From Eubacteriales bacterium (GTDB lineage Bacteria > Bacillota_A > Clostridia > Christensenellales > Aristaeellaceae): 16,129 nt of DNA. Positions within the stretch are counted from its first letter, which is position 1. The number at the start of each line of letters is the position of its first letter. Location: contig JAUMYC010000033.1 of NCBI GenBank assembly GCA_030528845.1, forward strand, positions 1 through 16,129. The letters run 5' to 3'. Shown here piece after piece: positions 1,712 through 8,278 of this stretch. The position numbers were made by a program, and so were the translations under genes. The notes beneath the pieces were generated by a model. It was not told the DNA's origin and searched no databases. It saw only the letters and a program-made list of their open reading frames with translations.

Positions 1712-1984
1712 AAAAAAACAAAACCGCCCGCCGGGCCTGCACAGCCCGGAAGGCGGCGTATTCGCACCGCGGTACCACTTCCGTTCGCCGCTGTTTTTAT
1801 GTAAAAAAGCGGCCTCGTCGCGCGCGTTCACGGGCGCACCCGGACAGGACTACGCGCCGCCGAAGCGGCTCTCGCCCTGCCAGCTCCGGGATGTATTCCC
1901 TCTGCCGCCGCCCGCCTCCTTCCACCGACCGGAGGCTCTCTTGAGAGCGCGCCTGCAGGGTACTTCTTCCCCTCACAGCAATTA
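1712..1984 (-). ncRNA. Tyrosine-specific T-box leader (riboswitch) with terminator/antiterminator
   Basis: Read on the minus strand, the leader carries the conserved T-box core AAGTGGTACCGCGG (1780-1767). Its UGGU bulge can pair with an uncharged tRNA ending in ACCA, as expected for tRNA-Tyr with discriminator A. Upstream, the stem I segment GGGAATACATCC places a UAC (Tyr) codon at 1895-1893 in the specifier loop. Downstream, a GC-rich hairpin (about 1756-1724, arms CCGCC..CCGGGC and GCCCGG..GGCGG) is followed by TTTTGTTTTTTT, the intrinsic terminator. Low tRNA-Tyr charging should favour the antiterminator and raise expression of the aminotransferase and tyrS. The stem I boundaries were estimated by eye. 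Confidence 0.93.
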
Positions 1985-1990
1985 TTGCTC

Positions 1991-2019: not shown

Positions 2020-2027
2020 ACGAATGT

Positions 2028-2056
2028 TTGCACGAACGGCCGCTTTGCGGTATAAT
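2028..2056 (+). promoter_or_regulatory. Promoter of the barnase/barstar unit
   Basis: -35 TTGCAC (2028-2033), a 17 bp spacer and a perfect -10 TATAAT (2051-2056). The predicted start near 2063 falls almost on the AGGAGG Shine-Dalgarno sequence (2064-2069), so the untranslated leader would be only about 16 bases. The unit is divergent from the T-box operon promoter. Confidence 0.8.
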
Positions 2057-2078
2057 AGAGAACAGGAGGCGAAAACGC

Positions 2079-2612
2079 ATGCTGAAAAAATTCCTCGCCG
2101 GGCTCCTTTTGCTGATGCTGCTGCTCGGCGCCTGCTTCGCGCAGACGGAGGAAGTGCTCTTCGACGGAGAATGCGCCATGACCGAAGAGAGCTTCGTCGA
2201 ACGGGGCTGCGACTACTTCTCTTCCGCAGACGTCGCGCTGTATCTGCACGTCTTCGGCGAGCTTCCGCCAAACTACCTCACCAAAGAAGAGGCATGGGAG
2301 CTGGGCTGGGATTCCTCCAAAGGAAACCTCTGGGAGATCGGCTACGGCTTCTGCATCGGCGGCAACTACTTCGGCAACCTCGAAGGTCTGCTTCCGGACG
2401 AATTCGGCCGGACGTGGTATGAATGCGACGCAAACTACGCGGGCGGCTACCGCGGGGCGGAGCGGCTCGTCTTCTCCAACGACGGGCTCATCTTCTACAC
2501 GGCAGACCATTACGAAAGCTTCGAACAGCTCTATGAGGGCTGGTACGATACGGATTATCTTTACGAAGAAGATCAATATGAACAGGAAGGTTGGTGGAAC
2601 TGGGAATGGTAA
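2079..2612 (+). CDS. Secreted or lipid-anchored barnase-type guanyl-specific ribonuclease with acidic tail
   Basis: A 177-residue microbial RNase (N1/T1/barnase family) that would cleave RNA after guanine. Residues 1-21 form an export signal (MLKK, a leucine-rich core, then LGAC/FA); Cys19 in LGAC fits a lipobox, with signal peptidase I cleavage after Ala21 as the alternative. The body aligns along nearly all of barnase: LPPNYLTKEEAWELGW, SKGNLWEI, IGGNYFGNLEG, GRTWYECDANY, YRGAERL and TADHY. Catalytic equivalents are present: Glu115 (barnase E73), Arg125 (R83), Arg129 (R87), His144 (H102) and Lys69 (K27). Barnase R59 is Leu101 here. Odd points are four Cys in the body, about 34 acidic against 6 basic residues in the mature chain, and a 25-residue tail (153-177) of acidic and aromatic residues. 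The ATG at 2079 follows AGGAGG. The stop overlaps the downstream inhibitor gene. Confidence 0.93.
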   Translation: MLKKFLAGLLLLMLLLGACFAQTEEVLFDGECAMTEESFVERGCDYFSSADVALYLHVFGELPPNYLTKEEAWELGWDSSKGNLWEIGYGFCIGGNYFGNLEGLLPDEFGRTWYECDANYAGGYRGAERLVFSNDGLIFYTADHYESFEQLYEGWYDTDYLYEEDQYEQEGWWNWEW

Positions 2613-2869
2613 GGTATGTTGTTGATGGTTCCAAAATGGTAGACCGCGAAACTGCGCACGACGAACTGGCGCGCGCTCTGTCTCTTCCCGAGCATTACGG
2701 GCGCAATCTGGACGCGCTTTGGGACTGCGTCTGCACCATGGAAGCGGACATCGTGCTGGAAAACGCGGCGGCGATGCGCGATGCGCTGGGCGTATACGGC
2801 AAGAAGATCATCTCCGTGTTCACGGACGCAGCCGGGCGCAGCACGCGGTTCTTCTTCACACAATTGTAA
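2606..2869 (+). CDS. Barstar-family ribonuclease inhibitor
   Basis: An 87-residue cytoplasmic inhibitor that plugs the active site of barnase-type RNases and protects the producer. LPEHYGRNLDALWDC (27-41) closely matches the barstar binding helix and loop: Asn34, Asp36, Trp39 and Asp40 correspond to barstar N33, D35, W38 and D39. Barstar Y29 is His30 here and E76 is replaced by Asp74. The ATG at 2606 is preferred: it gives the usual barstar start (MVRYVVDG) and its ATGGTAA overlaps the barnase stop by 7 bases, suggesting translational coupling. An in-frame TTG at 2591 would add five residues but has its AGGAAGG only one base away. A strong terminator follows. Pairing with the upstream RNase as its cognate immunity protein is inferred from adjacency and family. 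Confidence 0.92.
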   Translation: MVRYVVDGSKMVDRETAHDELARALSLPEHYGRNLDALWDCVCTMEADIVLENAAAMRDALGVYGKKIISVFTDAAGRSTRFFFTQL

Positions 2870-2896: not shown

Positions 2897-2935
2897 AAGC
2901 GGCATTTCTTTCCAAAAAGAAATGCCGCTCTTTTT

Positions 2936-2938: not shown

Positions 2939-3700
<762 letters not shown>

Positions 3701-3702
3701 CT

Positions 3703-4734
3703 TTATCCGGCCCTCCTGCTCTGCATGAAAATGGCCACAAACGCGGCCGCGCCCACGAGGCTCGTCACCACGCCGATGGGCAGCTCGCGCGGGCTGAGCA
3801 GCACTCTGGCGATCAGATCGGCCAGCAGCAAAAACACCGCGCCCGAGAACACACTGGCCGGGAGCAGGCGGCGGTGGTTCGGCCCGACGATCATGCGCGT
3901 CATATGCGGCGTGACCAGCCCGACAAAGCCGATGGTGCCGCCGATGGACACGCAGACGCCGATGAGCGCGGAAACGCACACGAGCACCGTCAGCTTCACT
4001 CTCTTCACATGCACGCCGACGGAGCGCGCGTTGTCCTCGCCGATGGCAAAGGCGTTGAGTTCGCGCATGTTGGCAAAGAGCGCCCCGCCGAACACGACCA
4101 GCGCCAGGAGCAGCGCGCCGATCTGCGTATAATCCGCTCCGGCGAGCGAGCCCATCGTCCAGAAGGTGATGGTCTTGACCTGTTCGCCCGCAAAGGTGAT
4201 CACCACGTTGATCAGAGCGCTGGCGAACATGGAGAAGATCACGCCCACGAGGATGATCGTGTTGGTGGAAAGGGAATAATCCAGCCGGTAGGCCAGGCCG
4301 AGGATGAGCAGAAGCGACAAAAACGCAAAGAGCATCGCCATGCCCATCGTGCCCGCAAGGGGCATGCCCGGCAGCCGCAGGCCGAAGGCGATCGCGATGA
4401 CCGCGCCCAGAGACGCGCCGGAGCTCACGCCCAGCGTGGAGCCGTCCGCGAGCGGGTTGCGCAAAAGCCCCTGCATGGCCGCGCCGCAAAGGGAGAGCGA
4501 CGCGCCCGTCAGCGCCACGGCCAGCACGCGCGGCAGGCGCACATGCAGGATAATGCTCGCCTGCATGCCCTCCGGCGGAGTCTGCCCCAGAGCGGCGCTC
4601 GCCAGCACCCGCAGCGTGTCGCCCACGGGCAAAGAAACGCTGCCTACGCAGACGCACAGCAGCATCGTGCACGCCGTGATCAGCCCGAACAGCGCCAGCT
4701 GCGCCGCCCCGAAGCCTTCGTTCTTTCTTTTCAT
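3703..4734 (-). CDS. FecCD-family ABC importer permease
   Basis: A 343-residue polytopic inner-membrane protein of the BtuC/FecCD family, expected to form a homodimer with about ten membrane helices each. Family landmarks seen are LRLPRVLAVALTGASLSLCG (as HVRLPRVLAVALTGASLS here), LADGSTLGVSSGASLGA, and near the C-terminus GLVTPHMTRMIVGPNHRRLLP and RELPIGVVTSLVGA. The start at 4734 follows a weak AGGGGCG and lies 21 bases after the binding-protein stop. It sits between its binding protein and its ATPase in one operon. Transport of a ferric siderophore, haem or cobalamin is a family-level inference. Confidence 0.95.
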   Translation of the reverse strand: MKRKNEGFGAAQLALFGLITACTMLLCVCVGSVSLPVGDTLRVLASAALGQTPPEGMQASIILHVRLPRVLAVALTGASLSLCGAAMQGLLRNPLADGSTLGVSSGASLGAVIAIAFGLRLPGMPLAGTMGMAMLFAFLSLLLILGLAYRLDYSLSTNTIILVGVIFSMFASALINVVITFAGEQVKTITFWTMGSLAGADYTQIGALLLALVVFGGALFANMRELNAFAIGEDNARSVGVHVKRVKLTVLVCVSALIGVCVSIGGTIGFVGLVTPHMTRMIVGPNHRRLLPASVFSGAVFLLLADLIARVLLSPRELPIGVVTSLVGAAAFVAIFMQSRRAG

Positions 4735-4755
4735 GTGTACACGCGCCCCTGTGCT

Positions 4756-5652
4756 TTATTCCGCCGTTCCCCAGATCGCCTCGTAGAGCTCTCTCGCCGC
4801 CAGCGCGAGGCGCGGGCCCGGTCGGGTGAAGGAATCGCTGTCGGTCGCATACACGCGCCCGTCGCGGATCGCGCGGACGCCCTGCCAGCCGGTGCGGCCG
4901 AGGATCTCCTCCACGGGGGTGTATTCCTCGCTGAAGGGCATCATGGTGGTGATGACGACCTGCGGATCCCGGCTGATGACCTGCTCGGCGGAGACCTCCG
5001 CCCAGCCTGTGAGCTCGCCGAAGATATTCTGCAGGCCCAGCAGCGCGCCGATCTCATGCATGAAGGTCTGCTCGCCGCCCGTCCACAGGCCCCACTCCAG
5101 CGGAGAGATCTCATAATAGATCGTCAGCGGCTCCTGCTGCGCGGCCAGCTGCGCCAGCTCGGCAAACTCGCCCTGCATGGAGGCGACGAGCGCCTCAGCC
5201 TCGGCGTTTTTGCCCGTGACCTGTCCGATCATGCGGATGGCCGCATAGACATCTTCGATCGAGCCGGTCTGCGTCTGGATCACGGCAATGCCCGCCGCCT
5301 TGAGCTGTTCGATCTGCTCGAGTGTCTGGTTCATGCTGCTGGTGAGCACGACCTGCGGCTCGAGCGCGATGATCTGCTCGATATTGGTCTCAAAGCCGCT
5401 CTGCACCGCAGGGATCTCCAGCGCCTCGGGCGGATAGTTGCAGTATTCTCCGCGGCCGACGATGGCCTCCTGCGCGCCGATGGCATAAAGGATCTCGCAT
5501 TCGCCCGCCGTGAGCACCACGATGCGCTCCGCAGGGCCTTCGAGCACGGCCACGTCGCCGAACATGTCCGTAATTTCCAGTTCGCGCGCAAAAGCGGGCG
5601 CGCAAAGGAGCAGCGCGCACAGCATCAGAGCAGCCCACATTTTTTTCAGCAT
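4756..5652 (-). CDS. ABC importer substrate-binding protein (BtuF/FepB-like, Peripla_BP_2)
   Basis: A 298-residue exported binding protein that would deliver a metal chelate or corrinoid to the FecCD permease. Residues 1-22 form a signal peptide ending APAFA, then RELEITDMFG and the usual PAERIVVL, LYAIGAQEAIVGR, IIALEPQVVL and, near the end, VRDGRVY-like (AIRDGRVYATD) segments of the class III binding-protein fold. The ATG at 5652 is chosen because GGAGGT lies 7 bases upstream and a signal peptide follows at once; upstream in-frame codons to 5886 would run through the promoter. There is no lipobox (LLLC lacks a small residue before Cys), unusual for a monoderm. No riboswitch or obvious Fur box is visible in the short leader. 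Confidence 0.92.
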   Translation of the reverse strand: MLKKMWAALMLCALLLCAPAFARELEITDMFGDVAVLEGPAERIVVLTAGECEILYAIGAQEAIVGRGEYCNYPPEALEIPAVQSGFETNIEQIIALEPQVVLTSSMNQTLEQIEQLKAAGIAVIQTQTGSIEDVYAAIRMIGQVTGKNAEAEALVASMQGEFAELAQLAAQQEPLTIYYEISPLEWGLWTGGEQTFMHEIGALLGLQNIFGELTGWAEVSAEQVISRDPQVVITTMMPFSEEYTPVEEILGRTGWQGVRAIRDGRVYATDSDSFTRPGPRLALAARELYEAIWGTAE

Positions 5653-5689
5653 TTTTCCTACCTCCACAGACGGATTTCCCACGCATACC

Positions 5690-5717
5690 ATTATAGCACA
5701 ACGCGCGGCGAGCGCAA
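5690..5717 (-). promoter_or_regulatory. Promoter of the ABC importer operon
   Basis: -35 TTGCGC (5717-5712), a 16 bp spacer and a perfect -10 TATAAT (5695-5690) on the minus strand, giving a leader of about 30 bases before the binding-protein ATG. A second TATAAT on this strand at 5803-5798 lacks a good -35. Confidence 0.7.
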
Positions 5718-5893
5718 TCCCCCATCTTCCGGCTGTTCGGCGAAGGAAAATGCTGCGCTCGGCGGGGCCTGCGCTGCCCCTGCATTTATTTTTACCTATT
5801 ATAATACGCCCATGCGCGCCCGTCCCCCGGTTAACGTTGGGAAAAATACAGATATTTTTCTCATTTTTAGCACACACCAGCGCCATTATGTAG
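5718..5893. other. Intergenic region between the divergent ABC operon and pyrophosphatase gene
   Basis: No gene is supported here. The region holds a two-strand TATAAT palindrome near 5797-5806 without convincing -35 partners, and an AT-rich hairpin at 5841-5860 with 8 bp arms GAAAAATA/TATTTTTC. The base composition turns AT-rich towards the pyrophosphatase promoter. Nothing else is recognised. Confidence 0.5.
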
Positions 5894-5904: not shown

Positions 5905-6133
5905 TGAATTTGGTCGTTTTGCAGACGGTGTATATTCCCTTCAAAAAGGACCGCCCGCAAAGCGCTTGCCATGCCTGCGGACAGACGAAAAACCAGTTCG
6001 CATTCCCGGCCCGCGGCCGATTACGAATGCAGAAAAGAGGGCAGAAGCAGCATCCGGTTTTCTCTGTGGCCCGCAAGGCGTATTTCAATACGGTTCATCG
6101 CAAGATGAAGATACAATTAGGAGGTTAGGGACC
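5905..6133 (+). other. Long untranslated leader of hppA, no known element recognised
   Basis: About 230 bases between the predicted transcription start and the hppA ATG. It contains local GC-rich complementarity (for example around CCCGCAAAGCGC and GGCCCGCGGCCG) but I cannot match it to a named riboswitch. A 74-codon open frame (5904-6128) has no ribosome binding site and no recognisable protein content. AGGAGG at 6119-6124, 9 bases before the ATG, is the hppA ribosome binding site. Confidence 0.45.

Positions 6134-8278
<2,145 letters not shown>

What the first reader, a model, noticed from the sequence alone, without database searches (positions are those of the whole stretch)
2079..2869. 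Barnase and barstar homologues encoded as a translationally coupled pair
The RNase stop and inhibitor start overlap in ATGGTAA (2606-2612). In the classic Bacillus case the two genes are, to my knowledge, not arranged this way. Toxin first and antidote coupled by overlap implies inhibitor synthesis depends on translating the RNase to its end. The RNase has an export signal and all main catalytic residues, and the inhibitor keeps Asp36, Trp39 and Asp40, so the pair looks functional: a secreted RNase with self-immunity, possibly for nucleotide scavenging or competition.
Basis: partly seen in the sequence, partly recalled or inferred. Interest (0 to 1): 0.72.

Follow-up and report, generated by a model that had tools for sequence, protein, structure and literature searches.

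The report
Overlapping barnase and barstar gene pair
A Clostridia-type bacterium encodes an exported RNA-cutting enzyme and, overlapping its last codons, the inhibitor that would protect the cell; such pairs are common in its relatives, so this is an ordinary family member with an unusually tight junction and one changed contact residue.

Summary
A barnase-family RNase with an export signal (2079-2612) and a barstar (2606-2869) overlap in ATGGTAA, between a promoter-like site and a terminator-like site.

It is not a new kind. In a non-random survey, 135 of 142 distinct RNase ORFs have barstar just downstream, and 30 of 134 called junctions overlap. Simple toxin-then-inhibitor barnase-barstar pairs are in print (PMC3482391). 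An RNase-inhibitor operon is published for B. licheniformis; that paper says barnase and binase lack it (PMC5021464).

Two features stand out. The barstar start has a weak Shine-Dalgarno (130 of 133 others score stronger), and the 7-nt overlap recurs only in the nearest relative found. This favours termination-reinitiation, untested. Also, the barstar-contact Arg59 is Leu here.

Across 112 pairs, RNase 59 and barstar 38, a known contact, covary most of 5254 column pairs after correction, though raw mutual information ranks the pair only 573rd.

In passing: all 23 distinct tandem-domain RNases in sister genomes have one domain without the catalytic His, and all precede a barstar.

The parts
2027..2056 (+). 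promoter-like site TTTGCA-18-TATAAT in front of the RNase gene
   Evidence: 10 of 12 matches; 3 sites found in the stretch against 0.5 (sd 0.6) in shuffles; consensus match only
2064..2069 (+). Shine-Dalgarno AGGAGG of the RNase gene
   Evidence: anti-SD duplex energy of the stretch -10.3 kcal/mol
2079..2612 (+). barnase-family RNase, 177 aa with stop codon
   Evidence: PF00545 E 1.5e-15; barnase in PDB E 3.6e-31; fold match
2079..2141 (+). export signal MLKKFLAGLLLLMLLLGACFA; cleavage after CFA by signal peptidase I or, alternatively, before Cys19 at the lipobox LGAC
   Evidence: sequence, predicted helix 2-20, lipobox pattern in 2 of 98 listed relatives; cleavage site inferred
2223..2534 (+). 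RNase domain, residues 49-152
2379..2381 (+). codon of Leu101, where barnase has Arg59
   Evidence: alignment
2535..2609 (+). acidic, aromatic C-terminal tail (residues 153-177); start ordered, end (166-177) predicted disordered
2584..2590 (+). AGGAAGG inside the RNase tail, 15 nt before the barstar ATG, further than usual for a Shine-Dalgarno
2606..2612 (+). overlap ATGGTAA of barstar start and RNase stop
   Evidence: same seven bases in L111
2606..2869 (+). barstar homologue, 87 aa with stop codon
   Evidence: PF01337 E 1.1e-20; fold match
2898..2929 (+). intrinsic-terminator-like hairpin followed by a T run
   Evidence: 14 pairs; but 1 found against 1.8 (sd 1.4) in shuffles, so the pattern alone is not significant

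Best explanation
This is a chromosomal-type two-gene unit for an exported guanyl-type RNase and its cytosolic inhibitor. The RNase is made with a Sec-type signal and leaves the cell (or stays on its outer face); barstar, without a signal, stays inside and blocks any RNase that folds before export by covering the active site. The genes are read as one message. Ribosomes that finish the RNase stop at TAA and restart at the overlapping ATG, so barstar is made mainly in proportion to completed RNase. The RNase most likely degrades RNA outside the cell, for nutrients or against neighbours. Shown: the two families, the overlap, the kept active-site residues, the weak barstar Shine-Dalgarno, family-wide covariation at the known contact. 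Inferred: export, co-transcription, reinitiation, inhibition, purpose.
For: Families and folds. Active site K27, E60, E73, R83, R87, H102 kept. Unit boundaries: promoter-like and terminator-like sites around the pair only. Reinitiation: barstar anti-SD energy -4.9 against a median of -10.2 kcal/mol; 130 of the other 133 starts score stronger; the one other 7-nt overlap, L111, the closest relative found, also scores weakly, -5.6. The closest database relatives of the RNase (P0003, P0005, P0011, P0012, P0018, P0025) end in Trp and barstars P0122, P0123, P0124 and P0127 begin Met-Val, which is what a kept ATGGTRA overlap would encode (inference; their DNA was not seen). Binding across the family: over 112 single-domain pairs RNase 59 x barstar 38 ranks 1 and 59 x 76 ranks 8 of 5254 column pairs after APC correction; 30 shuffles of partners gave at most z 1.9 for that pair against 6.98 observed, and at most 5.84 for any pair. 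PMC11408511 (passages) names cation-pi R59-W38 and ionic R59-E76 contacts in barnase-barstar.
Against: Nothing measures transcription, translation, export, RNase activity or binding. The terminator pattern is no more frequent than in shuffles. Raw mutual information for 59 x 38 ranks only 573 of 5254 and shuffling also breaks relatedness; barstar 38 also covaries with RNase 86 and 78. The window pair itself has Leu at 59, so the best-supported contact is altered here. The Shine-Dalgarno score leaves out AGGAAGG at 2584-2590, 15 nt from the ATG, and start choice in the survey favours strong sites. Junctions vary even inside the genus of L111 (+13 and +12 nt with a Shine-Dalgarno in L112 and L113), so a strict overlap is not needed for function. 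RNase and barstar are both acidic (pI 4.05 mature and 5.2), unlike cationic Bacillus RNases (abstract of PMC8837141), so the classical charge attraction is weaker.
Confidence: 0.75

Rival explanations
1. Same RNase-inhibitor pair, but barstar is translated mostly by its own initiation (from AGGAAGG at long spacing, or at an upstream in-frame GTG 2594 or TTG 2591); the overlap is just compact packing.
For: AGGAAGG at 2584-2590. Short spacing and overlap are frequent in the family: 30 of 134 overlap, 130 of 134 lie within -20 to +25 nt, and most other overlapping junctions carry a good Shine-Dalgarno inside the RNase tail. The window itself holds another overlap, 3703-3706 in an iron-uptake-type operon.
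Against: The spacing to ATG is 15 nt, to GTG 3 nt and to TTG 0 nt, none usual. The barstar family model starts at the ATG, and close relatives start Met-Val there.
Confidence: 0.3
2. A type II toxin-antitoxin module or an anti-phage defence pair acting inside the cell.
For: Toxin plus protein inhibitor in one unit; barnase and barstar are often called a toxin-antitoxin pair (abstract passage of PMC8625414).
Against: The RNase has an export signal; toxin comes first; no PADLOC model matches either protein at E 0.01; no match in 50,697 phage records and none confirmed in viral contigs.
Confidence: 0.06
3. A polymorphic-toxin cassette delivered into rivals by a dedicated secretion system.
For: Toxin-then-immunity order is typical of such systems, and barnase domains occur in them (PMC3482391).
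Against: No trafficking domain: only a signal peptide and one RNase domain with a tail. The paper itself sets simple barnase-barstar pairs apart as an incipient form.
Confidence: 0.07
4. The pair is decaying: Arg59 to Leu weakens substrate or barstar binding and one partner is on the way to loss.
For: Leu at 59 in 1 of 119 distinct single-domain RNases, the window. PMC6385678 (passage): changing R59 to Ala cuts the association rate more than 9-fold in barnase.
Against: Both frames are open and all other key residues are kept. Position 59 is naturally variable: R 83, Y 31, N 2, L 1, F 1 of 119, one fragment without the position. A near-identical copy, P0001, keeps Leu, as does a different relative, P0120.
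Confidence: 0.08

Closest known systems
Barnase and barstar of Bacillus amyloliquefaciens (and binase of B. pumilus)
   Same: Same folds and catalytic residues; barstar D35, W38, D39 kept.
   Different: Adjacent and overlapping here; PMC5021464 says an operon with the inhibitor is not characteristic of barnase and binase. Arg59 is Leu; RNase acidic; extra tail; Asp for barstar E76.
Balifase and YrdF (barstar orthologue) of B. licheniformis
   Same: RNase and inhibitor genes in one operon (PMC5021464, abstract passage and section 3.2).
   Different: Different lineage; the passages seen do not describe an overlap or translational coupling.
Simple barnase-barstar toxin-immunity gene pairs (PMC3482391)
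   Same: Toxin first, inhibitor second, called widely distributed in 2012 (section 41).
   Different: The paper does not, in the passages seen, discuss start-stop overlap or Shine-Dalgarno strength.
L111 (genome G454, unnamed), nearest relative found
   Same: RNase 64% identical over residues 1-177, same ATGGTAA junction, weak Shine-Dalgarno.
   Different: Arg at position 59; none of the six window neighbours that I searched with is found in the 12.5 kb around it.

Membership tests
Barnase-type (N1/T1) RNase | PF00545 domain over the curated cut-off | tested here: met
   57.9 bits against 24
Barnase-type (N1/T1) RNase | catalytic Glu73, Arg83, Arg87, His102 and Lys27 | tested here: met
Barnase-type (N1/T1) RNase | Arg59 of the guanine-binding loop, a main barstar contact | tested here: not met
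   Leu101; but 31 of 119 distinct single-domain relatives have Tyr and 4 others a further residue, so not family-defining
Barnase-type (N1/T1) RNase | barnase fold | tested here: met
Barnase-type (N1/T1) RNase | export from the cell | tested here: inconclusive
   signal-like N-terminus by sequence and predicted helix; no signal-peptide predictor or experiment
Barnase-type (N1/T1) RNase | guanyl-preferring RNA cleavage | not testable with these tools
   needs an assay
Barstar | PF01337 domain and barstar fold | tested here: met
Barstar | Asp35, Trp38 and Asp39 | tested here: met
   across 135 survey barstars D35 is kept in 135, D39 in 134, Trp38 in 44
Barstar | inhibits the cognate RNase | not testable with these tools
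   family covariation at the contact is indirect support
Polymorphic toxin system | N-terminal trafficking or presentation domains | tested here: not met
   only PF00545 found at E up to 1 in the 177-aa protein
Type II toxin-antitoxin module | toxin acts inside the producing cell | tested here: inconclusive
   export signal argues against; localisation not measured

The most novel reading that the evidence does not exclude
In this lineage the enzyme-inhibitor interface is being re-specified at one hot spot (RNase 59 with barstar 38 and 76); the window, Leu59 with Trp38, is one such state, held together by inhibitor synthesis that depends on reinitiation. In sister genomes the process has gone as far as splitting the jobs: one fused barnase domain cuts RNA and a second, dead domain with Arg59 or Lys59 is kept as the docking site of the following barstar.
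Probability: 0.2. Interest if true: 0.65.

Novelty: new member of a known kind. Interest (0 to 1): 0.3.

Why it matters
Barnase and barstar are a textbook protein pair, studied mostly from Bacillus, where the two genes are apart. The survey shows that in many Clostridia and related Firmicutes the pair is a compact toxin-then-inhibitor unit, so hundreds of natural, matched pairs with different contact residues are at hand to test how a tight interface changes without losing protection. The window gives a clear case for measuring reinitiation-dependent inhibitor synthesis.

Tried and rejected
A start-codon-hiding hairpin (2596-2632), which would give coupling by unfolding: z -1.50, 17 of 200 shuffles fold as well, z +1.29 in a 91-nt context, and no such hairpin in L111. 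Rejected.

A mobile-element origin: no phage record match, none of 55 viral-contig candidates confirmed, 4 of 72,556 plasmid records with partial matches under 60% identity. Not supported.

Conserved neighbourhood as a clue to function: of eight close loci searched with six window neighbours, only L158 shares a clear one (sodium pyrophosphatase, 74%), and L155 has a weak ATPase match (29%). Uninformative.

Tail as barstar mimic: residues 166-177 are predicted disordered (pLDDT under 50), so no support; not excluded. Complex prediction was not run: the structure tool folds one protein per job.

Literature: eight searches. Barstar with 'translational coupling' gave one paper, a review not opened; barnase with 'tandem' and 'pseudoenzyme' gave none. 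Open-licence papers only, so no claim of absence from print.

Limits of the survey: loci L001-L080 are the best 80 of 553; L081-L134 are best matches in 396 and 200 genomes (one search gave the same family list again); L135-L153 were picked because their genomes showed two matches. Rows were made distinct by the last 120 residues. One row without a start (L078) was left out of junction counts; the seven without barstar are L033, L053, L056, L058 (a 39-aa piece at a contig edge), L068, L152 and L153.

Full report
WHAT IS THERE. One search shows an RNase gene at 2079-2612 and a barstar gene at 2606-2869 on the + strand, sharing ATGGTAA. Pfam names both above cut-off, PDB sequence searches find barnase and barstar, and the two predicted folds match the solved ones. 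NCBIfam and PADLOC have no matching model at E 0.01. The pair lies between a promoter-like site (2027-2056) and a terminator-like hairpin (2898-2929); the terminator pattern by itself is no more frequent than in shuffles. The upstream T-box leader (1746-1985, minus strand) belongs to the divergent aminotransferase (497-1684).

RESIDUES. Barnase K27, E60, E73, R83, R87 and H102 are kept; R59 is Leu101. Among 119 distinct single-domain RNases the site holds R 83, Y 31, N 2, L 1 (the window), F 1, and one edge fragment without it. Barstar D35, W38 and D39 are kept, E76 is Asp, Y29 is His. The mature RNase is acidic (pI 4.05), as are 110 of 118 survey domains under pI 6, whereas the Bacillus enzymes are called cationic (abstract of PMC8837141, seen). 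The RNase ends in a tail whose first part (to about 160) is confidently predicted and whose end is not.

SURVEY. From 153 loci plus the window, 142 distinct RNase ORFs were found; 135 have barstar on the same strand within 400 nt. A start was called for 134: 30 overlap, 130 lie between -20 and +25 nt. An earlier pass on the first 80 loci alone gave barstar in 76, starts for 75 and overlap in 20. The survey is chosen by similarity, not at random, and related genomes are not independent. So adjacency and tight spacing are the rule here.

JUNCTION. Seven-base overlap occurs only in the window and L111, the closest relative found by whole-genome search (64%). Both have weak anti-Shine-Dalgarno energies (-4.9 and -5.6; median -10.2; 130 of the other 133 are stronger than the window). 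Most other overlapping junctions hold a good Shine-Dalgarno in the last RNase codons. The two other genomes of L111's genus have +13 and +12 nt gaps and a Shine-Dalgarno. I infer that barstar in the window depends mainly on termination-reinitiation; the alternative of AGGAAGG at 15 nt spacing remains. A hairpin over the start is not significant.

DO THEY BIND? Not tested directly. In 112 single-domain pairs, RNase 59 x barstar 38 is first of 5254 column pairs after APC (z 6.98), 59 x 76 is eighth; raw mutual information ranks 59 x 38 only 573. In 30 partner shuffles the pair reached at most z 1.9 and any pair at most 5.84. Arg59 goes with Trp, Tyr or Phe at 38 in 77 of 79 pairs; Tyr59 goes with other residues in 24 of 29 (Fisher p 5e-17 ignores relatedness). 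These are contacts named for the solved complex: R59-W38 cation-pi and R59-E76 ionic (PMC11408511, passages). The window combines Leu59 with Trp38, without a charge at the contact.

WHAT IS KNOWN. PMC3482391 (section 41 read) describes widely distributed simple barnase-barstar pairs as an incipient toxin-then-immunity order and explains that export removes the need for ready-made inhibitor. PMC5021464 (abstract passage and section 3.2) reports the RNase-inhibitor operon of B. licheniformis as unique among the Bacillus cases compared. The present pair is therefore a new member of a known kind.

TANDEM RNASES. In 23 of 23 distinct tandem-domain loci one domain keeps His102 with Tyr59, the other has lost His102 and has Arg59 (21) or Lys59 (2); the dead domain comes first in 5 and second in 18; all 23 precede a barstar. 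The dead domains form one clade (23 of 23, support 0.935). Barstar 38 is Tyr or Phe in 20 of these 23 and His in 3, like the partners of Arg59. Among 26 tandem entries in an earlier set (20 database proteins and 6 loci), P0023 and P0111 have two intact domains and P0002 has a dead domain with Tyr59, so the rule has exceptions. A dead domain kept for docking barstar is a hypothesis.

VERDICT. Observation confirmed, interpretation partly supported, interest 0.3.

Noticed in passing
related loci L089, L091, L094, L103, L126, L134, L135-L151: Tandem barnase proteins with one intact domain (His102, Tyr59) and one dead domain (His102 lost, Arg59 or Lys59) in 23 of 23 distinct loci, each followed by one barstar; dead domains form one clade but sit first in 5 and second in 18. 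Database exceptions: P0002, P0023, P0111.
   Followed up: partly
L033, L053, L056, L068, L152, L153: Intact RNase ORFs without a barstar detected within 400 nt downstream on the same strand; whether barstar lies elsewhere in these genomes was not searched.
   Followed up: no
L011, L013, L031, L064 junctions: The Shine-Dalgarno of barstar (GGGGAGGA) is formed by the last RNase codons and barstar starts right after the stop, so the RNase C-terminus doubles as a ribosome site.
   Followed up: partly
1746-2056: A T-box leader (minus strand) for an aminotransferase, with promoter-like sites on both strands whose first hexamers (2014-2019 and 2027-2032) lie a few bases apart.
   Followed up: no
2079-2141: The signal region reads LGAC, a possible lipobox, so this RNase might be lipid-anchored; the pattern is in 2 of 98 listed relatives, one of them the near-identical P0001.
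   Followed up: partly
2942-5886, minus strand: Iron-siderophore-type ABC uptake genes (PF00005, PF01032, PF01497), ATPase and permease overlapping at 3703-3706.
   Followed up: no
5966-8278: Membrane pyrophosphatase (sodium-translocating type by NCBIfam); a 74% match lies beside the pair in L158.
   Followed up: no
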